Assembly: GCA_023135025.1 (NCBI GenBank)
Contig: JAGLTY010000007.1
Coordinates: 1-18,194, forward strand
Direction: 5' to 3'
Source of the DNA: Bacteroidales bacterium
GTDB lineage: Bacteria > Bacteroidota > Bacteroidia > Bacteroidales > GCA-2748055
DNA: 18,194 nt
Part shown: one piece after another, positions 1,952 through 13,793 of the stretch
Layout of the letters: every line of letters begins with the position of its first letter
How positions within the stretch are numbered: position 1 is the stretch's first letter
Made by a program: the position numbers and the translations under genes
Notes under the pieces: model-generated
Database searches by the model: none
The model's input: the letters and a program-made list of their open reading frames with translations, nothing else
Told to the model about the DNA's origin: nothing

Positions 1952-3136
1952 TTAGATGTATCTGATGGTGACCTCCTTCAGAAACTTCTCTTCCAGCATC
2001 CTGGCCATTCGTTTCACAACGGTTCTTCTAATTTCGAGATCGATGGGAAGGTTTGGATCCTGGTGTGCAATATTCACCCTGGTTCCGATAATGAAATGAA
2101 TCTCATCACTTTGTTGAACCAGTTTCACAATCCGGTCCGCAGGCCCCTTGCCCAGAGTAAAAGAGGGGGAGAAATCCTTAAGGAGTCGGGTTACCTTTGT
2201 GATGGTCAGAATTCCCTCTGTGACAAGGTCAATCCCCTCCATATAGGAGACCGGAGGCAGCTCCGGGTCTTCAAATACCAGGCTGTCTTCAATCTCCACA
2301 TCCAGTTCACGGGCAATGATATCGGCGGTGGTGGCTCCGCACACCACTTTTTTTCCTTTGAATGCCCTGACTGAATCACCCAGTTCTTTGTCGTTCTCCT
2401 CTTCATAGGGGGGGCCGGTGATAATCATCAACTTTCGCGGTTTCCGAAAATAGATACTGGCACAGCTGGTATCGTCCTTGGAACTGTACCCATCGTTACG
2501 ATGAGCCATATTCACCATTTTTGATGCCAGTTTAGAGGCAGATATTTTGGGACTGTTCTCTACCAGCTGAATGGCATGCTCCTGCATATTCTCCCTTCCC
2601 CATCCCAGTGGAAACTTGTCTGTCCCCAGTCCTGACTGGGCAATGCCGTCACTACAGAATATGATCCTGTCCTCTTTCCTGGGTTCAAACTGGCAGGAGA
2701 GAATCTCCTTGCCTCTATTTTTTTCACTCTCAAGGGTCAGGCTCTTCCAGCCAGGATCAAAGGGCTTATTGTCTCTCAGTATAATGGTCTGGGGGTTGTC
2801 AAACTCCAGGATATTAATCAGTCCGTCGTGTTCAATATCCACAATGGTAAAGGTGGAATAGCTCATCTGCCGTTCGCTGCATACCGGCAGGGTGTTCATG
2901 ATGATCTCAGCAATCCGCTCCACTGCCTTATGCTCCATTGTGAAATTTACGGCCATAGTGGCTGTAAGTGTGGCCAGGACATTGGCTTTCACTCCGTGCC
3001 CCATCCCATCGGACAAAACCACAATGGTGCGGTTCTCCTCTTTCACCTTACGGCTGAGAAACACATCCCCACAAATACGCTCATTGCCAAAATTGCGTTG
3101 TTCGCAGGCGACCTCCATATAAAATTTACCACTCAT
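1952..3136 (-). CDS. SpoIIE/PP2C-type serine phosphatase with C-terminal extension, hydrogenase-locus associated
   Basis: This is a predicted Mn/Mg-dependent Ser/Thr phosphatase of the SpoIIE (PPM) family, 394 residues, soluble. Metal-binding acidic positions are visible: GD at 23-24, SDGMGHG at 42-48, SDGI at 162-165 and KDD at 220-222. The catalytic domain ends near residue 230. A further 160 residues (about 235-394) form a second domain that I do not recognise; it contains VVCGATTADIIARELDV, so it may bind a ligand. The start ATG overlaps the TGA of the upstream Fe-S/PAS gene (ATGA at 3133-3136), so the two are translationally coupled. SpoIIE-like phosphatases next to PAS-containing hydrogenase-like proteins are known from clostridial sensory [FeFe]-hydrogenase loci (HydS/Hfs type). 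The inferred role is to convert the redox state sensed by that partner into dephosphorylation of a Ser/Thr target. No STAS anti-anti-sigma factor or Ser/Thr kinase is encoded in this window. Confidence 0.85.
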   Translation of the reverse strand: MSGKFYMEVACEQRNFGNERICGDVFLSRKVKEENRTIVVLSDGMGHGVKANVLATLTATMAVNFTMEHKAVERIAEIIMNTLPVCSERQMSYSTFTIVDIEHDGLINILEFDNPQTIILRDNKPFDPGWKSLTLESEKNRGKEILSCQFEPRKEDRIIFCSDGIAQSGLGTDKFPLGWGRENMQEHAIQLVENSPKISASKLASKMVNMAHRNDGYSSKDDTSCASIYFRKPRKLMIITGPPYEEENDKELGDSVRAFKGKKVVCGATTADIIARELDVEIEDSLVFEDPELPPVSYMEGIDLVTEGILTITKVTRLLKDFSPSFTLGKGPADRIVKLVQQSDEIHFIIGTRVNIAHQDPNLPIDLEIRRTVVKRMARMLEEKFLKEVTIRYI

Positions 3137-4992
3137 CGATCTTTCAGGTCCTGTCTGAGGTTATACGATTCAATAATCGAATTGAGCATCCTTTCTGCTT
3201 CTGAAGTTCCTTCCCCCAGGATAAAACCGATCTGCTGCGCCAGGCTCAGGTTCTTGTCAATGACCTCGGTGAGCCGTTTTACCACCTCCTCTTTCTCTAC
3301 TTCGGGGGCTGACATATCCCGGATCACCGCACCAACAATCTTCTCTTTTTCTATAACAAACACGCTTACATTCAGGATCTTGCCTTCATGATGAATATCT
3401 CTGTTGGTAATGGATTCATTTTGTGCAAGCACATAGGTAAACAGGTTGTAGAAGTTATAGGGGAGGAGTGTCTTCAAATCGGCACCGGCAAGTCCGGGCA
3501 CCACCTCGTTGATCTCCTTTGCATCCTCTCCAAGCATCTCGATAAAACTGTCATTGGTCTGAATAATCTTCAGGTTCATATCACAGATAACCACCATAGA
3601 AGGTAGTTTATGGAGCATGCGGCGAACTATTTCAGAAGCCTCCCGGGCAGCCTCCTTCTCTTTTTGAGCAAGCCGCTCCGATCTCTTGAGGGCATCCTGT
3701 GCCTGTGCCAGCTTTTCATTGCTGATCTTCAGGGATTGGATATGATCCTGTCTGTTCCTGGATGCATAGATGTTGCACATCTCCGGAATGGCCAGGCCCT
3801 GGGCAATGGCAGTGGCAAAGTCGGTGCAGCTTGCATATCCGCATGCACCACACCCTATATCTGAAGGATTCAACTGATCAATCTCTTTCAGAATTTTATT
3901 CAGCTTACTTTCAGATGGAACCGGAAGAGATTGGTCATCTGCCCTGAATGTGCGATTCAAATTCAGTGATTCAAATTCAGTCATGCTGGCCTCCCATGCA
4001 TCCTTGTCCAGTGTCTTTATCCGCTTGTTTACATATTTAATAAGCTGACTATGCCTTAAAATTCTTCTCCCCCCGGCACTGGTTCCTCTTCCCATGAGGA
4101 ACTCTTTGTAAAAGAGATTGAAATGGTGTTTGATGGTTCCGATATCCTCCTCAAACTCCCTGATGGCGTCAATCATTCCGTTACCCTCTACTGTGATTAC
4201 AGGGGTGAGGTGTAGTTCCTCCTCGATACCGGCTGCCTGGATGATTCCGTTGGCCACAGGGAAGAAAGAGCCTTTAAAGCCCAGCGGGGCATCAAAATCA
4301 CTGTATTCAAGATCCGTTTCATGGATGTTGGCCTCACTGAAGAGTTCCCTGAGCTCCACAAAGGTGATGGCCAGGTCGATGCGGCTATCTCCTTCGAATC
4401 GCCTGATCTCATCTTTGCTGGCAATTAACGGACTGATATGAACCAGGATCACATCTTCGCCGGCAATCTTCCGGATCACTTTAGCTGTTGCAGCTACCGG
4501 TGGGATGATGGGAGCCAGGTTGGGCACTAGTGCGGGTTTGTATTTTTCAACAAAGGAGACGGTCACCGGATCGTTGGACATGATGTAATACTTTCCCTTG
4601 CTTTTTTTGAAAAGATCCTTGTAGGCCTTTGCCACCAGATCCACTCCAAATGCAACTTCGTTGATATACTGAAAGCCCAGCATACGAAGCATCTGGACAA
4701 ATTTCCTATAGTCTGTGATATCGGGAAACTCCCCTGCAATGGAGGGATCCACAAGTGCAGCTACCTTTTTCCCTCTTCCCAGGATCTTTCTCAGGTCATC
4801 CAGGGAGTTCCTGACTTCAATGGCACCAGGACCACACACGGCCACACAGCTTCCACAGCCAATACACCTTTCGGGGATGATTTCGGGTTTTACTTTTTCG
4901 GTCTGCACCCTTATTGCTTTCACCGGGCAGGCCCTTACGCATGCATAACAGGCAATGCAAGTTTCACTGTTGATTTTCAGGAGGGGTTCCAT
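3133..4992 (-). CDS. Hydrogenase-like Fe-S/PAS sensor lacking all H-cluster cysteines
   Basis: This 619-residue soluble protein is related to sensory [FeFe]-hydrogenases (HydS-like). Domain order: two ferredoxin-type [4Fe-4S] motifs (C12, C15, C18, C22 and C43, C46, C49, C53); a hydrogenase large-subunit fold (about 70-330); an Fe-S domain of the PF04060 type (C381, C384, C389, C406); a coiled coil (about 412-455); and a PAS domain (about 456-560) with a short helical tail. No kinase or output domain follows. The fold is degenerate at the active site: the L1 loop reads SNDPVTV (D141 where the paralogue at 9548 has C145), L2 reads SPLIASKDE (L189 for C193), and the L3 cysteine pair is gone (around 293-298). 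It should therefore carry three [4Fe-4S] clusters but no H-cluster. It probably acts as a redox relay or sensor working through the PAS domain and the phosphatase gene it overlaps. Confidence 0.88.
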   Translation of the reverse strand: MEPLLKINSETCIACYACVRACPVKAIRVQTEKVKPEIIPERCIGCGSCVAVCGPGAIEVRNSLDDLRKILGRGKKVAALVDPSIAGEFPDITDYRKFVQMLRMLGFQYINEVAFGVDLVAKAYKDLFKKSKGKYYIMSNDPVTVSFVEKYKPALVPNLAPIIPPVAATAKVIRKIAGEDVILVHISPLIASKDEIRRFEGDSRIDLAITFVELRELFSEANIHETDLEYSDFDAPLGFKGSFFPVANGIIQAAGIEEELHLTPVITVEGNGMIDAIREFEEDIGTIKHHFNLFYKEFLMGRGTSAGGRRILRHSQLIKYVNKRIKTLDKDAWEASMTEFESLNLNRTFRADDQSLPVPSESKLNKILKEIDQLNPSDIGCGACGYASCTDFATAIAQGLAIPEMCNIYASRNRQDHIQSLKISNEKLAQAQDALKRSERLAQKEKEAAREASEIVRRMLHKLPSMVVICDMNLKIIQTNDSFIEMLGEDAKEINEVVPGLAGADLKTLLPYNFYNLFTYVLAQNESITNRDIHHEGKILNVSVFVIEKEKIVGAVIRDMSAPEVEKEEVVKRLTEVIDKNLSLAQQIGFILGEGTSEAERMLNSIIESYNLRQDLKDR

Positions 4993-5001
4993 ATAAGTTG
5001 T

Positions 5002-5265
5002 TTACATCTCTCCAAGTTCGGTTTCAAGGATCTCCAGAACGCTCTCGTCGGTCACCTCCTCATATACCCTATTTCCGATCTTCATCACCGGACCTGCATT
5101 GCAGTTGTTGAAGCAGTGGTTTCCTTTCAGTATTACATCGCTCTCCAGGTTGTGGTCCTTCAGGTATTTCTGGACCACCAGGAGGGTCTTTTTGTTTCCG
5201 CGACTGAAACAGGAACTACCCAGGCATATTTTTATCTCCTTTTTTAAAAGTGTCATTCCGATCAA
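5002..5265 (-). CDS. Small thioredoxin-like [2Fe-2S] ferredoxin (HndB/NuoE C-terminal domain type)
   Basis: This is a predicted single-domain thioredoxin-fold [2Fe-2S] electron carrier of 87 residues. Four cysteines in the family spacing are visible: C14-x4-C19 (CLGSSC) and C51-x3-C55 (CFNNC), followed by GPVMKIGNRVYEEVT, as in NuoE C-terminal domains. It is the first gene of the leftward operon and ends nine bases before the start of the Fe-S/PAS protein. It may pass electrons to or from that protein's ferredoxin domains. ATG codons at 5265 and 5256 are both possible starts and no Shine-Dalgarno decides between them. It is shorter than Desulfovibrio HndB, so I do not assign that name. Confidence 0.88.
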   Translation of the reverse strand: MIGMTLLKKEIKICLGSSCFSRGNKKTLLVVQKYLKDHNLESDVILKGNHCFNNCNAGPVMKIGNRVYEEVTDESVLEILETELGEM

Positions 5266-5355: not shown

Positions 5356-5363
5356 TATCTTTG
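5356..5363 (+). promoter_or_regulatory. Candidate -7 element of the hyd operon
   Basis: TATCTTTG matches the Bacteroidetes TAnnTTTG -7 element exactly. Predicted transcription start is near 5370, leaving a leader of about 50 bases before the HydC start at 5422. The -33 region (TGTTTTT around 5329-5335) is only a loose match. The same octamer occurs before the acyl-CoA synthetase gene at 15159-15166. Confidence 0.55.
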
Positions 5364-5421: not shown

Positions 5422-5898
5422 ATGGCTGACGATACAGCAAGAATAGAAGAGATCCTGCAGCGGTTCCCGCAAATAAAGAGGAATGCGCTGATCCCGCTTC
5501 TTCAGGCTTTTCAGGATGAATTTGGTTATATTTCCGAGGAGGCCATTTCCAGGATTGGCGCACATCTCTCTCTACCCACCAGCAAAGTCTACGGCCTGGC
5601 CACTTTCTATAATCAGTTCTCTTTCTCACCAAGAGGTTTCTACCATGTGGTCCTCTGTAATGGCACTGCATGCCACATGGGTGGTGCCGGGGAGTTGTTG
5701 AATGAAATCACCAAACTGCTTGATATCGAAGATGGAGAGACCACACGTGACGGTCTGTTTAGTCTGGAGGTACAATCCTGTATAGGGGCGTGTGGACAGT
5801 CACCTGTAATGGCAGTGAATGGTGCCTATTATTCTGGAATCACTGTGAAGGAGGTCAGGGAGATCATCAATCAATACAGGGAAGATGCAGAGAGATAG
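5422..5898 (+). CDS. hydC: NuoE-like [2Fe-2S] subunit of the NADH-linked hydrogenase complex
   Basis: This is the electron-transfer subunit of HydABC/Hnd-type complexes, homologous to NuoE of complex I; 158 residues, cytoplasmic. An N-terminal helical bundle (about 1-65, ending in KVYGLATFYNQF) precedes a thioredoxin-fold domain. That domain binds one [2Fe-2S] cluster through C79-x4-C84 (CNGTAC) and C120-x3-C124 (CIGAC). All four ligands and the family length are intact. The ATG at 5422 is the first in frame after the divergent promoter. The 3' end overlaps the start of the NuoF-like gene by 14 bases, showing tight operon coupling. In electron-bifurcating hydrogenases this subunit docks on the NuoF-like flavoprotein. 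Equivalent names are HndA (Desulfovibrio) and HydC (Thermotoga). Confidence 0.93.
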   Translation: MADDTARIEEILQRFPQIKRNALIPLLQAFQDEFGYISEEAISRIGAHLSLPTSKVYGLATFYNQFSFSPRGFYHVVLCNGTACHMGGAGELLNEITKLLDIEDGETTRDGLFSLEVQSCIGACGQSPVMAVNGAYYSGITVKEVREIINQYREDAER

Positions 5899-7816
5899 AG
5901 CATTTTTGTTAAAGCTGGCACAGTGTGACCATTCTGAGCTGAATCCTGATGAATTACGGCAGGTGGATATACTCAGGAAGATTCAGGTCCCAAAGCCACT
6001 GGTGATGGTGAACAGCTCCACTTCCGGAATTGTAGCAGGATCGAAAAAAACATGGGAGGCCATTGAACAGTATGCGGCGGACCGTTCCATTGAAATTGAC
6101 CTGACCGAAACGGGAAGTATTGGATTGAGTTCAGAAGATCCTGTGGTTTCGGTACAGTTGCCGGGACGTGCCCGCATCTTTTTTCGCAGGATTACCCCTG
6201 AGAAGGTCCTCTCTTTGCTGGATGACCTCTTTCACCAGGTAGTGCCTGATCAGAATGTCATTGGACAGCTTTGGTGTGAGGGACAGGAGTCCTGGAAGGA
6301 TGTTCCGGCCCTGGAAGATATACCATATTTTGCATTGCAGAGCCGTATCGTCATGGAGTCTTGTGGAATCATCGATCCTTTCTCATTTGAAGAGTATATT
6401 GCAGGCGGCGGATACAGGGCATTTCTGAATACCATTCGCAGTTACACATTCAGTGAGGTTTGTGACCTGGTGAGTGACAGTGGACTGAGGGGTCGGTCGG
6501 GAGGGGGATTTCCAACCGGTGAGAAATGGAAAGCAGCATTTCGGACACCCTCCGATCAAAAATTTATGGTCTGCAACGCCGAGGAGAGTGATCCCGGTGC
6601 ATTTATGGATCGTACCCTGATGGAGGGAAACCCGTTTCAGTTACTGGAGGGCATCTCTATTGCAGCCTATGCCATCGGTTCCAACAGGGCCTATATCTAT
6701 ATCCGTAGTGAGTACAAAGAGGCCATCAGGCGCATTAACAATGCCATTAAGGAACTAAGAGAGATGGGGCTGCTGGGGGACAATATCCTGGATAGTGGTT
6801 ATAACCTTCAAATCTCACTGCGCAAGGGTCCGGGTGCATTTGTCTGTGGGGAGGAAACCGCCCTGATAGCGAGCCTGGAGGGGAGAAGGGGAATGCCTTC
6901 TTCCAAACCACCTTACCCATCCACTTCAGGTTACCTGGGACGACCTACAGTGGTCAATAACGTGGAGACCCTCTCCAATTTGCCCGGAATCATAAGAAAT
7001 GGCCCCGACTGGTTTAAGGGGATAGGAACAGGGGATTGTCCTGGAACCAAGATATTTAGTATTTCGGGCCGGGTAAAAATGGCCGGATTGGTTGAAGTGC
7101 CTATGGGTACCTCCTTCGATACCATCGTCAATAAGATTATCGGTGGAGTTGGTAAAGGCAGGGAACTGAAAGCACTGCATGTGGGGGGACCATCGGGGTG
7201 TATGGTTCCTGTGGAACTGATGGAGATTCCTGTGACATATGAAACCCTGAAGGAGAAAGGGCTGGTGATGGGTTCGGGAGGAGTTATTGTCATGGATGAC
7301 AGGACCTGTGTGGTCAATACGGTCAGGTACTTTATGGAGTATTTGCATAAACAGAGTTGCGGAAAATGCATCCCCTGCAGGGAAGGGACAAGACGAATGG
7401 CCGAGATCCTGACCAGCATCACTCGGAAACCTGTAGATGAGGAGGGGCATACCACCCTGGAGAGGTTCAAAGGTGTGATGCAGCTGGAGAATCTGGCTGA
7501 GGTGATGAAGGATACCTCTCTTTGCGGACTTGGTCAGAATGCGCCCAACCCGGTAGTGAGTACGCTTAAATATTTCAGGCATGAATATGAGGAGCATATC
7601 TTCGATAGGCGATGTCCTTCCAACTCATGCACAGAGTTACGTAGCTGGTTCATTGATGTGGACCTCTGTACCGGATGCTCCATCTGCGCCAAAAGGTGTC
7701 CGGCCGAAGCGATTATCGGTACAGCGAGACACCCCTATTTTATCGTTCAGGAGAAGTGTATTGGGTGTGGAATCTGCCATGAGGTATGCAAGTTTACAGC
7801 AGTGTATTATAAATAG
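5885..7816 (+). CDS. hydB: NuoF-like flavin/NAD(H) subunit with degenerate N-terminal thioredoxin domain
   Basis: This is the FMN- and NAD(P)(H)-binding subunit of a HydABC-type complex; 643 residues, full length for HydB. Domains: a thioredoxin-like N-terminus (about 35-118); the flavin/NADH core with GLRGRSGGGFPTGEKW (200-215) and CNAEESDPGAF (230-240); an SLBB region (about 385-460); the NuoF [4Fe-4S] site C492, C495, C498, C547; a CPxxxC pair (C577, C582); and two C-terminal [4Fe-4S] ferredoxin motifs (C595/598/601/605 and C625/628/631/635). In most HydB proteins the N-terminal domain binds [2Fe-2S]. Here the ligand segments read VNSSTSG and TGSIGLSS, so all four cysteines are gone. The fold is kept but that cluster is absent. 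The other clusters and the flavin site look intact, so NADH oxidation or reduction remains likely. The stop lies three bases before the hydA start. Confidence 0.93.
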   Translation: MQRDRAFLLKLAQCDHSELNPDELRQVDILRKIQVPKPLVMVNSSTSGIVAGSKKTWEAIEQYAADRSIEIDLTETGSIGLSSEDPVVSVQLPGRARIFFRRITPEKVLSLLDDLFHQVVPDQNVIGQLWCEGQESWKDVPALEDIPYFALQSRIVMESCGIIDPFSFEEYIAGGGYRAFLNTIRSYTFSEVCDLVSDSGLRGRSGGGFPTGEKWKAAFRTPSDQKFMVCNAEESDPGAFMDRTLMEGNPFQLLEGISIAAYAIGSNRAYIYIRSEYKEAIRRINNAIKELREMGLLGDNILDSGYNLQISLRKGPGAFVCGEETALIASLEGRRGMPSSKPPYPSTSGYLGRPTVVNNVETLSNLPGIIRNGPDWFKGIGTGDCPGTKIFSISGRVKMAGLVEVPMGTSFDTIVNKIIGGVGKGRELKALHVGGPSGCMVPVELMEIPVTYETLKEKGLVMGSGGVIVMDDRTCVVNTVRYFMEYLHKQSCGKCIPCREGTRRMAEILTSITRKPVDEEGHTTLERFKGVMQLENLAEVMKDTSLCGLGQNAPNPVVSTLKYFRHEYEEHIFDRRCPSNSCTELRSWFIDVDLCTGCSICAKRCPAEAIIGTARHPYFIVQEKCIGCGICHEVCKFTAVYYK

Positions 7817-7819
7817 TGA

Positions 7820-9547
7820 ATGATGGGAATAAGGCTGGAGGTAAATGGAAGAAGCATTGAAGCGGAGAAGGGAGAGACCATACTCTCTGCCCTGAATCGC
7901 AATGGCATGCATGTGCCTACCATCTGTAGCATGAAGGACCTCTCTCCTTCCGGGGCATGCCGTATGTGTGTTGTTGAGGTTGAGGGGAGAGAGAACCTGG
8001 TTCCATCCTGTTCTTTCCCCATTGAGGGCCCCATGAAGATCATGACCCATTCTCCCAGGGTATTGAGGGCACGGAAGACCAATGTGGAGTTGTTGCTCTC
8101 AAATCATCCCGACGATTGCCTTTACTGCGAGCGGAACGGCTCATGTGAACTGCAATCGCTCGCCGAAGATCTGAACATCAGGGAGAGACGTATTCCGGGA
8201 AAAAGAACTCCCCATAAGATTGATAAGTCAAGTCCGGCCATCATTTGGGACCCATCCAAATGCATACTCTGTGGGCGATGTGTAAGGATCTGTGAGGAGA
8301 TTATGCATACCTCTGCTCTGGATTTTGCACACAGGGGAAACCAATTGAAGATATCAACCACCCTTGGCAAGCCGCTTAACTACTCAAATTGCACCTCCTG
8401 TGGCCAATGCCTGAATGCCTGTCCCACAGGGGCACTTATTGAACATGTGCAATTTCCCGAACTGGAAGTACATATTCATGCTCCCGGCAAGCTGGTGGTG
8501 GCCCAGTACAGTCCGGCCGTGGCCATCTCTGTGGCTGAACTGTTGGGATTTAAACCCGGTACCGATTTGAGTGGGATCATCAACGCCGTGTTGCGCAGGT
8601 ATGGATTCGATTTTGTATTTGAAACCTCTTTTGGAGCCGATCTGATGATCATGGAACAGGCCAGGGTATACCAGGAACGTATGGGGGAGGGGAACGAATT
8701 TCCTTTGATCACCAGTTCCTGTCCGGCATGGGTTCATTATGTGGAACAATACTATCCTGAGTTGATGCCGTTTCTCTCCCCATTGAAATCACCACAGCAG
8801 ATGGTCGGTGCACTGATCAGGGAGTGGTTTCCCAGGGTGGGGAAACAGGAGGGAAAAGAGATCGTTTCAGTGGTGATCTCCTCATGCACGGCTGCCAAGA
8901 CCGAAGCAAGGAGGGTGGAGATGACCTATGCGGGAATTCCCGTGATCGACCTGGTTCTGACCACACGTGAACTGGCCAGAATGATTAAACTCAGCGGACT
9001 CGACCTGGAGCAACTGGAGCCGGAGATGCCCGATGCACCATTCTGTTCGACAGGTTCTGCCGGGAAGCTTACCGGTGTAGCAGGTGGGGAGATAGAAGCC
9101 ACAGTTCGCACCATTTATGCTCAAACCACAGGGAGAGAGATGCCCCCATCAAAACTGCACAGGTTCCGGGTTCATAAATCTTATCGTGAGATGACTGTTA
9201 AAGCGGGGAATACCGAGATCAGGATGGGTACAGTCAGTGGTCTCGCCAATGCGGTCACACTGATTGAAGAGCTCAAAACAGGAAAGAGGAGACTGGACCT
9301 CCTGGAGGTGATGGCCTGTCCGGAAGGATGCATCAATGGGGGCGGACAACCCATACCGGTGGATGAAAAACTACTTCGAGCCAGATCAAAGGCTGTTTAC
9401 GACATGGATAACGGGAGTGACCTGCATACGGCTCACAGCAACCAGGTTGTGCAGGATATTTACAATGATTTTCTGGGGGAACCAGGAGGAAAGCTGAGCC
9501 GGGAGCTGCTCTATACCACCTTTACAAAAAGGGAGGTTTTATTATAG
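7820..9547 (+). CDS. hydA: [FeFe]-hydrogenase catalytic-type subunit with altered active site
   Basis: This 575-residue subunit has the M3 architecture of NADH-linked [FeFe]-hydrogenases. It has a plant-type [2Fe-2S] domain (C36, C47, C50, C64), a His-Cys [4Fe-4S] site (H96, C100, C103, C109), two [4Fe-4S] motifs (C148/151/154/158 and C191/194/197/201), the H-cluster domain (about 225-515) and the small-subunit tail (about 520-575). The four H-cluster cysteines are present: C301, C356, C500, C504. The loops are not canonical. L1 is TSSCPAW instead of TSCCPxW, so the proton-relay cysteine (C299 in CpI) is S300. L2 is SSCTAAKTE instead of MPCxxKxxE. L3, EVMACPEGCINGGGQP, is near normal. The proton-channel glutamates E279 and E282 of CpI align with Q280 and V283. 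H2 chemistry, if any, is probably slow. ATG at 7820 or 7823 may be the start. The stop abuts the next ATG. Confidence 0.9.
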   Translation: MMGIRLEVNGRSIEAEKGETILSALNRNGMHVPTICSMKDLSPSGACRMCVVEVEGRENLVPSCSFPIEGPMKIMTHSPRVLRARKTNVELLLSNHPDDCLYCERNGSCELQSLAEDLNIRERRIPGKRTPHKIDKSSPAIIWDPSKCILCGRCVRICEEIMHTSALDFAHRGNQLKISTTLGKPLNYSNCTSCGQCLNACPTGALIEHVQFPELEVHIHAPGKLVVAQYSPAVAISVAELLGFKPGTDLSGIINAVLRRYGFDFVFETSFGADLMIMEQARVYQERMGEGNEFPLITSSCPAWVHYVEQYYPELMPFLSPLKSPQQMVGALIREWFPRVGKQEGKEIVSVVISSCTAAKTEARRVEMTYAGIPVIDLVLTTRELARMIKLSGLDLEQLEPEMPDAPFCSTGSAGKLTGVAGGEIEATVRTIYAQTTGREMPPSKLHRFRVHKSYREMTVKAGNTEIRMGTVSGLANAVTLIEELKTGKRRLDLLEVMACPEGCINGGGQPIPVDEKLLRARSKAVYDMDNGSDLHTAHSNQVVQDIYNDFLGEPGGKLSRELLYTTFTKREVLL

Positions 9548-11536
9548 ATGGAACAGAGGGTTAGAAAGAGGGGACTCGTTTATACTGTCAAGGATCTGTG
9601 CAGGGTATGCTACACCTGTGTCAGGGAGTGCCCGGTAAAGGCCATCAGGATTGTGGACGGCCAGGCCGAGGTGGTGGCAGAGCGTTGTATTGCCTGCGGG
9701 AACTGTACCATAGTCTGTTCTCAGGGAGCAAAGGTATATGAGCGCTCCATCGACCGGGTGAACGATCTGTTGCGGGATGAGAAAGAGGTGACAGCCATTG
9801 TGGCGCCAAGCTATGTAGCAGAGTTTGAGGATGTTCCAGACACAACTCTTTTTGCAGGTATGTTAAAGAAGCTTGGATTTAACCAGCTGTATGAGGTGGG
9901 TATGGGGGCCGATCTTGTAGCTGAGGAGTATGAAAAACTGATCAATGGAAATTCCGGTAAAGGATATATAAATTCTGATTGTCCGGCCATTGTCTCTTTC
10001 ATCGAAAAATACCATCCCGACCTGATTGAATCGCTTACTCCGGTGGTATCTCCAATGGTGGCCACTGTGCGGTATATCAGGGAGGTATCGAAAAGCAATG
10101 CAAGGATTGTGTTTATCGGACCGTGTGTGGCAAAAAAGGAGGAGTCGGATGAGGTGGATGAGGTGATTACCTTTTCAGAGTTGAGGAGTATGTTTACATC
10201 CAGAAGGATCAGGGCTTCCAATGTGGAGCGGGCAGCGTTTACACCACCCCTTGCCATGAAAGGAGCAGGCTTCCCTGTAAGCAGAGGTCTGCTTCAATCG
10301 ATGAACCTGGAGGGAAATCATGTGGACCAGCGGGTTATTGTTGCGGAAGGAAGGGTTCACTTCCAGGAGGCGATCAGGGAGTATGCTTCAGGGAAGCTGG
10401 GTTCCATGCAACTTGAGCTGCTCTGTTGTGAAGGGTGTATCATGGGACCGGGAACCAGCCCTGACGGGAATAAGTTTGTCCGTAGAAGCCATGTGCTCAA
10501 CCACCTATACCAAAGAGTTGATAAGGCCAATGGAGAGACAGAGGGGGTAAGGGCGGAACACTGTAACCTGGATCTTGGCCGTTCCTTTAAAAGGGGCGAT
10601 CAGCGCATCAGTGTTTCATCGGAAGATGAGATTGAAAAAGTACTTTTTCAGATGGGAAAGTTCTCTCAACAGGATCACCTGGATTGTGGAGCGTGCGGAT
10701 ACGACACATGTCTGAGCCATGCAAGGGCTATTACACAGGGACTTGCCGAGGTGGAGATGTGCCTTCCCTATTCCATAGATACCCTGCACCAGACCATTCA
10801 TAAACTGGCTGATTCAAATCATAAGTTGCTCTCTGTGGAACAGGCCCTGCAACAGAGTGAAAAACTGGCACATATGGGACAGCTCGCCGCGGGAATTGCC
10901 CATGAATTAAACAACCCGCTTGGAGTGGTCATTATGTACAGCAACCTTCTGCTTGAGGAGAGCGGTGATGATCAACAGTTGAAGGAGGATCTGGAATTAA
11001 TTGTGGAGCAGGCGGGGAGGTGCAAGTCCATTGTGGGCGGATTACTGAATTTTGCAAGGAAGAACCAGGTAAAGTATTCCCGCATCGATCTGGAGGAGTT
11101 GATGAGAATAAGCACTACCTCCATGATTTTTCCTGATAACATCACCTTAAACATGGAGAACCATCTCTCCAATCCTTTCGCTGAGATGGACAGGGAGCAG
11201 ATGGTTCAGGTGATCACCAACCTGTTGAAGAACGGAATGGAAGCCATGCCCAATGGCGGGACCCTAACTGTGAATCTCTCTGATAGCCACGACCGGGTGA
11301 TTATCAAGATCCGGGATGAGGGTACCGGAATCTCTCCTGGCGATCTGGAGAAGGTATTTGAACCGTTCTATACAACCAAGGGCATTGGAAAAGGTACAGG
11401 CCTTGGATTGGCCACAACCTATGGGATCGTTAAGATGCACAGGGGAGAGGTCGATGTGAAATCCAATACACAGCCTGAAAAAGGGCCCACTGGAACGGAA
11501 TTTACCATTAAGCTTCCCAGGAAGTTAGTGCAATAG
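9548..11536 (+). CDS. Sensory [FeFe]-hydrogenase fused to a histidine kinase
   Basis: This 662-residue soluble protein joins a hydrogenase-like sensor to a complete histidine kinase. Domains: two [4Fe-4S] ferredoxin motifs (C18/21/24/28 and C47/50/53/57); an H-cluster fold (about 80-325) with all four ligand cysteines (C145 in NSDCPAI, C193 in GPCVAKKEE, C293 and C297 in CCEGC); a PF04060-type Fe-S site (C380, C383, C388, C405); a coiled linker; HisKA with phospho-accepting H452 (GIAHELNNPLG); and HATPase with N558, DEGTGIS (590-596) and GKGTGLGLA (614-622). The proton-relay cysteine before C145 is D144, so this is likely a sensor and not a turnover enzyme. It resembles group C/D-type hydrogenases. 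Its start directly follows the hydA stop codon with no gap. The probable partner regulators are the next two genes. Confidence 0.9.
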   Translation: MEQRVRKRGLVYTVKDLCRVCYTCVRECPVKAIRIVDGQAEVVAERCIACGNCTIVCSQGAKVYERSIDRVNDLLRDEKEVTAIVAPSYVAEFEDVPDTTLFAGMLKKLGFNQLYEVGMGADLVAEEYEKLINGNSGKGYINSDCPAIVSFIEKYHPDLIESLTPVVSPMVATVRYIREVSKSNARIVFIGPCVAKKEESDEVDEVITFSELRSMFTSRRIRASNVERAAFTPPLAMKGAGFPVSRGLLQSMNLEGNHVDQRVIVAEGRVHFQEAIREYASGKLGSMQLELLCCEGCIMGPGTSPDGNKFVRRSHVLNHLYQRVDKANGETEGVRAEHCNLDLGRSFKRGDQRISVSSEDEIEKVLFQMGKFSQQDHLDCGACGYDTCLSHARAITQGLAEVEMCLPYSIDTLHQTIHKLADSNHKLLSVEQALQQSEKLAHMGQLAAGIAHELNNPLGVVIMYSNLLLEESGDDQQLKEDLELIVEQAGRCKSIVGGLLNFARKNQVKYSRIDLEELMRISTTSMIFPDNITLNMENHLSNPFAEMDREQMVQVITNLLKNGMEAMPNGGTLTVNLSDSHDRVIIKIRDEGTGISPGDLEKVFEPFYTTKGIGKGTGLGLATTYGIVKMHRGEVDVKSNTQPEKGPTGTEFTIKLPRKLVQ

Positions 11537-11564: not shown

Positions 11565-11957
11565 ATGAGTGAAAAGAAGAAGAGCATTTTGCTGGCGGAT
11601 GATGATCCGGATATGATTTTCCTGGTGAAACATCACCTGGAGCGCTGGGGATATGAGGTGATTGCTGTGGAATCGAGGGAGGAAGCTGAGCGCTACCTGG
11701 AGAGTGGATGTCCCGATCTGGCTATTCTCGATCTGATGATGGAGGAGGAGGACAGCGGTTTTATCCTCTCATACAGGATTAAAAAGTGCCGGCCCGAAGT
11801 GCCTGTGATTATCTGTACGGCAGTGGCTGCCGAAAGTGGTATCAGTTTCGATATCAACAGTCCCGGCAGCAGGTCCTGGATCAAAGCAGATCACTATTTG
11901 GAAAAGGGTTTTAGAATGGAACAGTTAAGATTATTGGTTAAGAAATACCTCGATTAA
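11565..11957 (+). CDS. Single-domain response regulator (REC only)
   Basis: This 130-residue receiver domain has no output domain. Acidic pocket D12/D13/D14, phospho-acceptor D56 (LAILDLMM), T85 (VIICTA) and K114 (YLEKGF) are all present, so it should accept phosphate. The stretch between T85 and K114 is some seven residues longer than usual and contains NSPGSRSW. It lies 28 bases after the hydrogenase-histidine kinase and three bases before the REC-kinase. It probably shuttles phosphate between those two proteins or acts by protein-protein contact. No DNA-binding partner is encoded nearby. Confidence 0.9.
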   Translation: MSEKKKSILLADDDPDMIFLVKHHLERWGYEVIAVESREEAERYLESGCPDLAILDLMMEEEDSGFILSYRIKKCRPEVPVIICTAVAAESGISFDINSPGSRSWIKADHYLEKGFRMEQLRLLVKKYLD

Positions 11958-11960
11958 TTC

Positions 11961-13079
11961 ATGGAAACTTTATCTATCCTGGTGGTTGATGATGAACCGG
12001 GAATCCGGTCGGGAGTAAAAAGGATTCTTGCAGGGCACAGTGTGAGTTTCCCTTTTATGGATGATGATTATCTGTTTGAGGTTCGGGAGGCAGCCAGTGG
12101 TGAAGAGGCACTTGTTATGCTGGAAGAGGCACCACCTGAAATCCTTTTGTTGGATAATAAACTACCCGGTATGGACGGGATGGAGGTGCTGGAGATTATC
12201 AGACAGAAAAAGATGGATATCATGGTGGCTATGATCACATCCTATGCATCCCTTGAAATTGCGGCCAAAGCCACCGAAGACGGGGCCTGGGATTTTATTC
12301 CCAAACCATTTACTCCAGCCGAGTTAAAGTCCAGCATCGACCTGATCACAAAGCAGTATTTCCTGAAGAAGATAACGAGAACAATGAAGGAGGAGGGGAA
12401 AAAGATTCGTTACCAGTTTCTCTCCGTACTGAGTCACGAGCTTAAATCACCCCTCAATGCACTGGAGGGATACCTTCAAATGATAAAGGAGCGGGAGTTG
12501 GGAGAGGGTCTGAAAGTTTATGATGCAGTTCTGGACCGCTCACTTCAGCGTGTGGAGGGGATGCGCTCACTGATTATGGATCTGCTCGATTTTACCAAAA
12601 TCAGGCTGGAACGAAAAGATGAAAAAATTGAACATGTGAATCTCATGGAATGTGCACAGTTGGCTCTTGCAACCATTAAGCCCCTCGCTATACAACGAAA
12701 TATTGCTATTACCTGCACAGGTGAGGAGATCTATTACGATGCGGATCCGTCGGACCTGGATATCATGTTCAACAACCTGCTCTCCAATGCAGTGAAATAT
12801 AACCGTGAGGGTGGTGAGGTGGAGGTTTCGGTTCACCGGAGGGACCAGGTTGTTGAGATCCTGGTGAAGGATACAGGAATCGGCATGAGTGAGCAGGAGA
12901 TCTCACAGTTGTTCAAAGAGTTTGTTCGTATAAAAAACAGCAGGACCAGGGGCATTGCCGGTTCGGGCCTGGGCCTCTCAATAGTGAGCAAAATTGCAGG
13001 ACTTTACGGGGGACATATTCAAGTGAACAGCACCCCCGAAAAGGGCAGCGAATTCAGTGTGATTCTGCCTTTGTCCTGA
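11961..13079 (+). CDS. REC-histidine kinase (N-terminal receiver, C-terminal kinase)
   Basis: This is a 372-residue cytoplasmic protein with no membrane segment. The N-terminal receiver (about 3-130) has D10/D11, phospho-acceptor D65 (LLLDNKLPG), T93 and K115 (IPKPF). A short helical linker leads to HisKA with H159 (FLSVLSHELKSPL). The HATPase domain shows NNLLSNAVKYN, DTGIGMS and GSGLGLSIV. In this architecture the receiver usually controls the attached kinase, so phosphate from the upstream hydrogenase-kinase may set its activity. It is the last gene of the tight hydrogenase run. A 90-base gap with overlapping dyads separates it from rex. Confidence 0.9.
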   Translation: METLSILVVDDEPGIRSGVKRILAGHSVSFPFMDDDYLFEVREAASGEEALVMLEEAPPEILLLDNKLPGMDGMEVLEIIRQKKMDIMVAMITSYASLEIAAKATEDGAWDFIPKPFTPAELKSSIDLITKQYFLKKITRTMKEEGKKIRYQFLSVLSHELKSPLNALEGYLQMIKERELGEGLKVYDAVLDRSLQRVEGMRSLIMDLLDFTKIRLERKDEKIEHVNLMECAQLALATIKPLAIQRNIAITCTGEEIYYDADPSDLDIMFNNLLSNAVKYNREGGEVEVSVHRRDQVVEILVKDTGIGMSEQEISQLFKEFVRIKNSRTRGIAGSGLGLSIVSKIAGLYGGHIQVNSTPEKGSEFSVILPLS

Positions 13080-13109: not shown

Positions 13110-13169
13110 TTGAATCTGTGATTTAATTAACAATATTTTGTAGTATTGTATCAGATCAAATATTACTTT

Positions 13170-13793
13170 ATGACCTTACCGGAGCGTACTGTTGAACGTT
13201 TGAGTGAATACCGCAGGTCCCTTCTTCAGTGCCTTGAGGAGGGAAAGACACATATTTTCTCTCATGAACTCGCAGAACTTCATCACAATACAGCGGTACA
13301 GGTACGTCGGGATATTATGTTTATCGGCTATACCAGCATGCAGCGAAAAGGGTACGATTTAAGAGAGCTGGTCGATGTCATTGGAGATATTCTTGATTCG
13401 GAGAGGGGCCTCAATGTGGCTGTGATCGGCATTGGTAATCTTGGTAGAGCAGTCACCACCTACTTCGTAGGGAAGCGGTCGAAGCTCAATATCATTGCTA
13501 CTTTCGATGTGGATACTACCAAGATAGACAGGGTGATCTCGGGTGTAAAGTGCTACCCGCTCAGCAGGTTGAACGAGGTGGTTAAAGCCCAGCAGATCTC
13601 CATTGCCATTCTGACTGTACCGGCCGATTCAGCGGCTGAAGTGACCGCCCAACTGGTGGAAGCGGATATTAAGGGTTTGATGAATTTCACTACTGTACCC
13701 CTGAATGTACCGCCCGACGTGTACCTGGATGAGTTTGATATGATCACTTCGCTGGAGAAAGTAGCCTATTTCGTGAAGAGTCCCCAGAACTAA
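13170..13793 (+). CDS. rex: Redox-sensing transcriptional repressor Rex
   Basis: Rex binds DNA at low NADH/NAD+ and releases it when NADH accumulates, typically controlling fermentation and hydrogenase genes. An N-terminal winged helix (about 1-80) carries the recognition segment NTAVQVRRDI (40-49). A Rossmann domain follows with the dinucleotide motif GIGNLG (87-92) and the Rex-type C-terminal helix. The frame extends upstream to a TTG at 13146, but the ATG at 13170 (MTLPERTVERLSEYRR) matches where family members begin, giving 207 residues, the usual size. It sits between the hydrogenase signalling genes and a RibF-like gene, starting the second part of the run after a 90-base gap with dyads. 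Its location is strong circumstantial evidence that it regulates the hyd genes. Confidence 0.94.
   Translation: MTLPERTVERLSEYRRSLLQCLEEGKTHIFSHELAELHHNTAVQVRRDIMFIGYTSMQRKGYDLRELVDVIGDILDSERGLNVAVIGIGNLGRAVTTYFVGKRSKLNIIATFDVDTTKIDRVISGVKCYPLSRLNEVVKAQQISIAILTVPADSAAEVTAQLVEADIKGLMNFTTVPLNVPPDVYLDEFDMITSLEKVAYFVKSPQN

What the first reader, a model, noticed from the sequence alone, without database searches (positions are those of the whole stretch)
7820..9547. HydA keeps H-cluster cysteines but lacks key catalytic residues
Seen: the H-cluster cysteines C301, C356, C500 and C504 are present, but L1 is TSSCPAW and L2 is SSCTAAKTE. Known for Clostridium pasteurianum CpI (recalled sequence): C299 relays protons, E279 and E282 continue the channel, and K358 and M353 contact the di-iron site. 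The segment aligns without gaps from L1 back to the channel helix: C299 to S300, E279 to Q280, E282 to V283, while R286 and S319 equivalents are kept. In L2, M353 becomes S354, P354 becomes S355 and K358 becomes A359. Inference: the subunit may bind an H-cluster or a bare [4Fe-4S] but is unlikely to turn over H2 fast. It could be a sensory or repurposed NADH-linked complex. The operon position beside sensor kinases fits.
Basis: partly seen in the sequence, partly recalled or inferred. Interest (0 to 1): 0.82.

Follow-up and report, generated by a model that had tools for sequence, protein, structure and literature searches.

The report
Hydrogenase-like protein stripped of catalytic site
In many anaerobic Bacteroidales-type bacteria one copy of a hydrogen-making enzyme has lost its chemistry step by step but kept its iron-sulfur wiring beside regulatory genes, while a second copy in nearly all of the same genomes stays intact, which suggests an enzyme turned into a redox relay or sensor.

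Summary
The window's HydA (7820-9547) keeps all four [4Fe-4S]H cysteines but has S300, Q280, V283, S354, S355 and A359 where active HydAs have C, E, E, M, P and K. Two changes were missed: A230 to S231 and F417 to T418. The window protein and its 120 closest listed clusters share Q280 and S300; none has Lys at 359. It is no isolated oddity: 61 HydA rows (55 genomes of a 295-genome draw of the order, plus five named records) form a supported clade. All 19 iron-sulfur cysteines are kept in 61 of 61; pocket residues are lost to graded extents. 52 of 55 such genomes also carry a second trimeric HydABC, its pocket intact in 53 of 53 copies checked; 0 of 44 genomes with the undegraded operon do. Selection is purifying (dN/dS 0.07-0.10). 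Best reading: a retired hydrogenase kept as an NADH/ferredoxin-linked electron relay, probably for redox signalling (inferred). The sensor kinase is not always beside it: absent in L010, L011 and L056. Known relatives: HylA, NiFe-Bfu A subunit.

The parts
7820..9547 (+). HydA-like subunit, 575 aa: N-terminal Fe-S wire plus hydrogenase domain with [4Fe-4S]H ligands but without the di-iron pocket residues
8657..8659 (+). Q280 (CpI E279, proton channel)
   Evidence: Q in 121/121
8717..8722 (+). S300 (CpI C299, proton relay) and C301 (CpI C300, [4Fe-4S]H ligand)
8879..8896 (+). L2 loop S354-S355-C356-T357-A358-A359 (CpI M353 P354 C355 .. K358)
   Evidence: K in 0/121 at A359
9071..9073 (+).
9317..9331 (+). 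L3: C500 and C504, [4Fe-4S]H ligands, kept
5422..5898 (+). NuoE/HydC-like [2Fe-2S] subunit
   Evidence: four Cys kept 55/55 divergent loci
5885..7816 (+). NuoF/HydB-like FMN/NADH subunit with C-terminal 2x[4Fe-4S]; B2 ligands C475, H571, C577, C582 kept; N-terminal Cys replaced by S47, S78, S82
9548..11536 (+). HydS-type sensor: 2x[4Fe-4S], H-domain (D at C299, G-P-C..K at L2), FeS, HisKA-HATPase
11565..11957 (+). single receiver-domain response regulator
11961..13079 (+). receiver plus histidine kinase
13146..13793 (+). Rex-type NADH-sensing repressor
5002..5265 (-). 87-aa thioredoxin-like [2Fe-2S] ferredoxin
3133..4992 (-). HfsB-like PAS protein with hydrogenase-like domain that lost the H-cluster Cys in the window genus
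1952..3136 (-). SpoIIE/PP2C-type phosphatase

Best explanation
The gene encodes a HydA paralogue that is no longer a hydrogenase. It keeps every iron-sulfur ligand from the NADH/ferredoxin side to the [4Fe-4S]H cubane but not the pocket that holds and protonates the di-iron subcluster. In a NuoE-NuoF-HydA complex, electrons from NADH (and perhaps ferredoxin) would end on this cubane instead of making H2. H2 chemistry in the same cell has been handed to a second, intact HydABC. The retained complex most likely reports or relays the NADH/ferredoxin redox state to its neighbours (HydS-type kinase where present, PP2C-HfsB, Rex). Shown by sequence: loss of pocket residues, retention of ligands, clade, co-occurrence with the intact copy, purifying selection. 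Inferred: no di-iron cluster, electron flow, signalling output.
For: Residues. E279Q and C299S each under 1% activity in CpI (PMC6226526, passages). Sensory HydS enzymes that still bind an H-cluster keep the residues that H-bond the [2Fe] unit (PMC10055695, passages; that K358 is one of these is recalled); this protein lacks K358. All 19 Fe-S Cys 61/61 in the divergent clade; C299 27/61, E279 5/61, F417 11/61, K358 34/61. The clade is one side of a branch, SH-aLRT 99, and 98 without active-site columns. Intact L002-type HydABC in 52/55 divergent against 0/44 canonical-operon genomes; its HydA pocket intact in 53/53 (52 of those genomes plus G465; one has G418 to A). Loci: HfsB 39/45 v 0/27, PP2C 38/43 v 0/24, Rex 43/47 v 4/29. 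dN/dS 0.07-0.10 against four relatives. NuoF ligands of the bifurcation-linked cluster B2 (3 Cys, His) kept 56/56.
Against: No biochemistry. HydE, HydF and two partial HydG matches are in the genome and HydG lies beside 22/42 divergent operons, so a cofactor supply exists. TamHydS lacks the whole group A proton path and still binds an H-cluster (PMC8163306, passages). 8 of 61 clade members keep all five direct contacts, so the clade as a whole is not H-cluster-free. The HydS kinase is missing in 8 of 53 divergent loci, so a direct relay to it cannot be general. The co-occurrence with the second HydABC is one clade against another and may be one historical event; three divergent genomes lack the second HydABC. 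Neither receiver protein has a DNA-binding domain.
Confidence: 0.55

Rival explanations
1. It still binds an H-cluster and acts as a slow H2 sensor, like group C/D HydS enzymes, coupling H2 and NADH to the kinase cascade.
For: Four ligand Cys and the S323 and M497 equivalents kept in 121/121, Q325 in 103/121; P324 kept in the window protein; maturases present; TamHydS-type enzymes tolerate loss of the proton path and Ser/Thr at M353 (PMC8163306, passages); 8/61 clade members keep all five contacts.
Against: K358 to A in 118/121, P354 to S in 118/121 and F417 changed in 120/121 of the window subfamily, on top of C299 and E279. The neighbouring HydS kinase, the more obvious H2 sensor, keeps K358.
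Confidence: 0.2
2. It is a Bfu-type NADH/ferredoxin electron-bifurcating complex with a new third partner, feeding electrons to or from a separate enzyme through HydA, as in HylABC-FdhF2 or NiFe-HydABCSL.
For: NuoF keeps the B2 ligands and the C-terminal 2x[4Fe-4S] cysteines 56/56; published precedents in which HydA lost the H-cluster (PMC6085437, PMC9304861). In the window genus an acyl-CoA synthetase-type gene and, in L009, an aminotransferase and a 2-oxoacid:ferredoxin oxidoreductase-type gene follow.
Against: I found no partner oxidoreductase linked to the operon across the clade, but I looked only for genes already in the window and for HydE, HydF and HydG. The N-terminal Cys of NuoF, part of the core that PMC9304861 calls invariant, are all lost here.
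Confidence: 0.2
3. The gene is simply decaying.
For: Loss of otherwise invariant residues at several sites; the HfsB neighbour and the NuoF N-terminal cluster also eroded in this lineage.
Against: dN/dS 0.07-0.10; all Fe-S Cys kept 61/61; Q280 and S300 fixed in 121/121; no stop inside the window gene.
Confidence: 0.03

Closest known systems
Trimeric HydABC / NADH-dependent [FeFe]-hydrogenase, group A (T. kivui 8a6t, A. woodii 7q4v, T. maritima 7p5h)
   Same: Same domain order, all Fe-S ligands including [4Fe-4S]H, NuoE and NuoF partners; 40% identity to 8a6t
   Different: Proton relay, proton channel and direct di-iron contacts lost
HylA of HylABC-FdhF2 (Clostridium acidi-urici)
   Same: HydA homologue lacking conserved motifs, with NuoEF-type partners
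   Different: No formate dehydrogenase recognised in the window; L3 and all four cubane Cys kept here; HylA reported only from Firmicutes in PMC6085437 (passages)
HydA of NiFe-HydABCSL / Bfu family (PMC9304861)
   Same: [4Fe-4S] in place of the H-cluster (inferred here); NADH/Fd core
   Different: No NiFe subunits recognised in the window; N-terminal [2Fe-2S]-type Cys of the B subunit lost
Sensory HydS (groups C/D), HfsB, Ruminococcus albus HydS
   Same: Altered C299 and M353; beside PAS, kinase and phosphatase genes
   Different: HydA here has no fused PAS or kinase domain and loses K358, which the HydS kinase next door keeps

Membership tests
[FeFe] hydrogenase group A (TIGR02512, NF040763) | Curated score cut-off | tested here: not met
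   363.4 v 405.95 bits; 634 v 765 bits
[FeFe] hydrogenase group A | L1 TSCCPxW | tested here: not met
   TSSCPAW
[FeFe] hydrogenase group A | L2 MPCxxKxxE | tested here: not met
   SSCTAAKTE
[FeFe] hydrogenase group A | L3 ExMACxxGCxxGGGxP | tested here: met
   EVMACPEGCINGGGQP
[FeFe] hydrogenase group A | Binds an H-cluster and turns over H2 | not testable with these tools
   needs infrared spectroscopy and assays
Hyl (HylABC-FdhF2) | HydA homologue lacking conserved L1, L2 and L3 | tested here: not met
   L1 and L2 lost, L3 kept
Hyl (HylABC-FdhF2) | Formate dehydrogenase encoded with it | tested here: not met
   none among the 12 window proteins scanned against Pfam; the rest of the genome was not searched for it
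Bfu family (PMC9304861) | BfuBC core: FMN domain, B1, B2 (3 Cys + His), 2x[4Fe-4S], C1 | tested here: met
Bfu family (PMC9304861) | Remaining [2Fe-2S] cluster of BfuB (B5), taken here to be the N-terminal one | tested here: not met
   three Cys all Ser in the window; all three kept 31/56 divergent, 40/40 canonical
Bfu family (PMC9304861) | Identified third substrate | not testable with these tools
   no partner recognised in the loci
Sensory HydS (groups C/D) | H-domain fused to C-terminal FeS/PAS or kinase | tested here: not met
   HydA-like ends after the small-subunit domain

The most novel reading that the evidence does not exclude
This bacterial order holds an evolutionary series in which a working NADH-linked [FeFe]-hydrogenase was converted into a non-hydrogenase redox relay or sensor: the internal proton-channel residue (E279) is gone in nearly all members, the di-iron contacts were lost several times and to different extents, the electron wire never, and the change goes with a second intact HydABC and a phosphatase-PAS-Rex regulatory cluster. 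In the window lineage the emptied pocket has been reset to a fixed serine-rich cavity beside a [4Fe-4S] cluster, which may bind something new.
Probability: 0.4. Interest if true: 0.78.

Novelty: new variant of a known kind. Interest (0 to 1): 0.62.

Why it matters
Genes like this are named hydrogenases automatically (several of the closest clusters carry 'iron-only hydrogenase group A'), so H2 budgets inferred from metagenomes of these bacteria may count non-hydrogenases. The graded series offers natural variants, from one changed residue to nine of ten scored positions, for asking which residues are needed to hold the H-cluster and how a bifurcating enzyme can become a sensor.

Tried and rejected
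Rejected: misalignment (same result with three solved structures, and two MAFFT alignments); sequencing error (same residues in 120 other clusters); loss of maturases as the cause (HydF in 53 of 55 divergent genomes; HydE, HydF and two partial HydG matches in the own genome); a Rex-type or TGTGA palindrome as a conserved operator (2 sites, and 27 of 200 shuffles had at least 2; TGTGA palindrome in 1 of 37 intergenic regions). HydF presence cannot test the idea, because these genomes keep an intact HydA. HydG adjacency does not separate the two groups (22/42 v 11/27). AlphaFold2 gave a mediocre model (mean pLDDT 66.9; hydrogenase domain mostly 73-90; residues 119-211 under 50); its best match is 8a6t, but no coordinates were available to measure the pocket. 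B-subunit cluster loss correlates only weakly with HydA degeneracy (Mann-Whitney p 0.04, relatedness not corrected). The trees are quick searches with SH-aLRT only; forks deep inside the divergent clade are weak, and no ancestral states were computed, so the order of losses is a reading of how widespread each loss is. No AU test was run.

Rows dropped: one short fragment (L006) and duplicates (173 hits to 143 sequences); for the tree 23 canonical rows from the phylum draw (L029-L052 except L040). The match list was cut by the tool and at most 4 candidates per genome were scored there, so low-scoring HydAs were not all seen. Subunit and neighbour counts use only loci long enough to hold the gene. 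One search gave 44/53 for the HydS kinase in divergent loci, which places genes by midpoint, corrects this to 45/53 (L140 had been misplaced); other counts did not change. Of the 99 genomes counted, 79 were searched for HydF (plus G465) and 99 for the L002-type (79, 20).

Full report
WHAT IS THERE. The window is contig C432 of an unnamed assembly, 80.9% complete; its nearest named relatives are Bacteroidota/Bacteroidales assemblies, from which I take the order to be Bacteroidales. Gene order is PP2C phosphatase (1952-3136 -), HfsB-like PAS protein (3133-4992 -), small [2Fe-2S] protein (5002-5265 -), then NuoE-like (5422 +), NuoF-like (5885 +), HydA-like (7820-9547 +), HydS-type histidine kinase (9548 +), receiver (11565 +), receiver-kinase (11961 +) and Rex (13146 +), by Pfam and NCBIfam scans. 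A RibF-type FAD synthetase (13795 +) and an acyl-CoA synthetase-type protein (15187 +) follow. The name HfsB is given by analogy with the Thermoanaerobacterium gene; I did not compare the sequences.

They add A230 to S231 and F417 to T418. The NCBIfam hydrogenase models match but fall below their cut-offs (363 v 406 and 634 v 765 bits). In the window protein plus the 120 listed clusters (of 7,999 hits) Q280 and S300 are fixed, position 354 is always S or T, position 359 is A in 118 and never K, and the four [4Fe-4S]H cysteines are fixed. The new residues are therefore conserved, not drifting. dN/dS between the window gene and four relatives is 0.07-0.10.

A LARGER PATTERN. A draw of 295 genomes of the window's order gave 183 with a HydA match at E 1e-60 or better. 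I fetched loci of the best-scoring members and aligned 143 different HydAs plus T. kivui HydA1. A tree of 121 rows splits 61 divergent HydAs from the other 60 rows on a branch with SH-aLRT 99; with the active-site columns removed the same split has 98. The 61 rows are 56 from 55 genomes of the draw and five named records. On a ten-position pocket score (which tolerates H or M at 325 and A at 418) every changed row lies in this clade. Inside it, E279 is kept in 5 of 61, A230 in 6, F417 in 11, C299 in 27, M353 in 33, K358 in 34 and P354 in 45; the fewest changes on the tree are 10 for C299 and 11 for K358. All 19 iron-sulfur cysteines are kept in 61 of 61. So proton-path position E279 is almost universally gone, the di-iron contacts were lost repeatedly and to different extents, and the electron wire never. 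Eight members keep all five direct contacts (C299, M353, P354, K358, F417) and may well still bind an H-cluster; 23 have lost C299, M353 and K358 together, the window among them. Eight rows have D at C299, a change that leaves 30-80% activity in CpI and HydA1 (PMC6226526, passages) and about half of kcat in CaHydA (PMC3485046, passages).

DIVISION OF LABOUR. Among the 99 genomes counted none had both the intact and the degenerate form of this operon. A second trimeric hydrogenase, typified by own-genome locus L002 (NuoF-HydA-NuoE), is present in 52 of 55 genomes with a divergent HydA and in 0 of 44 with the intact form of the operon. Exceptions: G482 (98% complete), and G454 and G522, which are 70% and 78% complete. 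I fetched these L002-type HydAs: in 53 of 53 (the 52 plus G465) the checked residues are canonical, one with G418 to A. This is a within-genome control: the same cells that let one HydA erode keep the other. In 19 of 44 intact-operon genomes the operon HydA was the only HydA match, against 1 of 55 divergent genomes. The two groups come from 28 and 30 families with one family in common, so relatedness is not controlled and the association may be one event. The phylum draw (395 genomes, 50 with a match) showed no further degenerate HydA among the 29 fetched loci L025-L053; the lower-ranked matches there were not fetched, and other phyla were not searched.

NEIGHBOURHOOD. With loci long enough to judge, divergent v intact operons have HfsB 39/45 v 0/27, PP2C 38/43 v 0/24, small [2Fe-2S] protein 39/52 v 0/35, Rex 43/47 v 4/29 and HydF 0/42 v 9/27. 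The HydS-type kinase is near both: 45/53 v 36/39. HydG is near both: 22/42 v 11/27. In eight genomes the intact L002-type HydABC lies directly beside the PP2C gene of this cluster (L149, L161, L136, L141, L173, L176, L193, L194). In L010 and L011, close relatives of the window, and in L056 the kinase and receiver genes are absent and HydA is followed by Rex (L010 has only 900 bases after HydA and is not in the counts). Deletion of hfsB raises ethanol yield, with increased adhE expression, in Thermoanaerobacterium saccharolyticum (PMC5707799, passages), which supports a regulatory role for that kind of neighbour.

PARTNER SUBUNITS. NuoF keeps the B2 ligands (C475, H571, C577, C582) and the C-terminal 2x[4Fe-4S] cysteines in 56 of 56 divergent loci, the site PMC9304861 (abstract, passages and parts of sections 4-6 seen) ties to bifurcation. 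The three N-terminal cysteines are intact in 40 of 40 canonical-operon loci, all three in 31 of 56 divergent loci, and all Ser in the window. I take that N-terminal site to be cluster B5 of that paper, which is an inference. HfsB in the window genus has lost the H-cluster cysteines; over 41 divergent loci each of three such cysteines is missing in 4 to 6, and L056 of the same family keeps the first. The HydS kinase keeps its cubane cysteines and the K358 equivalent, with D at C299. In this lineage, then, the only hydrogenase-like protein at the locus that still looks equipped for an H-cluster is the kinase.

MECHANISM. Shown by sequence: pocket residues lost, wire kept, strong selection, intact copy elsewhere in the genome. 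Following from established work: E279Q and C299S each nearly abolish turnover in CpI. Inferred: the di-iron unit is absent because the Lys, Pro and Phe contacts are gone as well; sensory HydS enzymes that hold an H-cluster keep the H-bonding residues (PMC10055695, passages). Against this, TamHydS shows that an H-cluster can survive loss of the whole group A proton path (PMC8163306, passages). The remaining complex would equilibrate NADH, and perhaps ferredoxin, with a terminal [4Fe-4S] cluster. A redox-reporting role is my preferred reading because the strongly linked extra genes that I looked for are regulators, but no output is demonstrated.

KNOWN OR NEW. H-cluster-free HydA relatives are known: HylA (PMC5861303, PMC6085437; passages) and the A subunit of NiFe-HydABCSL (PMC9304861). 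Searches in an open-licence library listed no paper that, by title and the abstract start shown, describes this clade; papers in subscription journals and the supplement of PMC9304861, whose BfuB tree has 17 unassigned clades, were not seen. I class it as a new variant of a known kind.

Noticed in passing
L010 4100-6587 and L011 3548-5974: HydA-like gene is followed directly by Rex; the HydS kinase and both receiver genes are absent at this place in close relatives of the window.
   Followed up: yes
window 3133-4992 (-): HfsB-like protein lost the H-cluster cysteines in the window genus (MSNDPVT, ISPLIASK), while most relatives keep them.
   Followed up: partly
L003 450-2231 (own genome C250), also L182: Otherwise canonical HydA with TSCSPGW, i.e. 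Ser at the C300 ligand position; the A. woodii chain 7q4v aligns the same way.
   Followed up: no
window 6023-6130: N-terminal [2Fe-2S]-type cysteines of the NuoF-like subunit are all serine; lost fully or partly in 25 of 56 divergent loci, never in 40 canonical ones.
   Followed up: partly
window 5356-5363: TATCTTTG, resembling the Bacteroidota -7 promoter box (recalled consensus), lies upstream of NuoE and is conserved in 7 of the 8 rows aligned (not in L056).
   Followed up: no
L009 19414-22152: Downstream of the acyl-CoA synthetase come an aminotransferase-type and a 2-oxoacid:ferredoxin oxidoreductase-type gene (Pfam), hinting at amino-acid fermentation.
   Followed up: partly
genome G465: 99% complete genome with L002-type and TSCSP-type HydAs but no HydF match at E 1e-60.
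   Followed up: no
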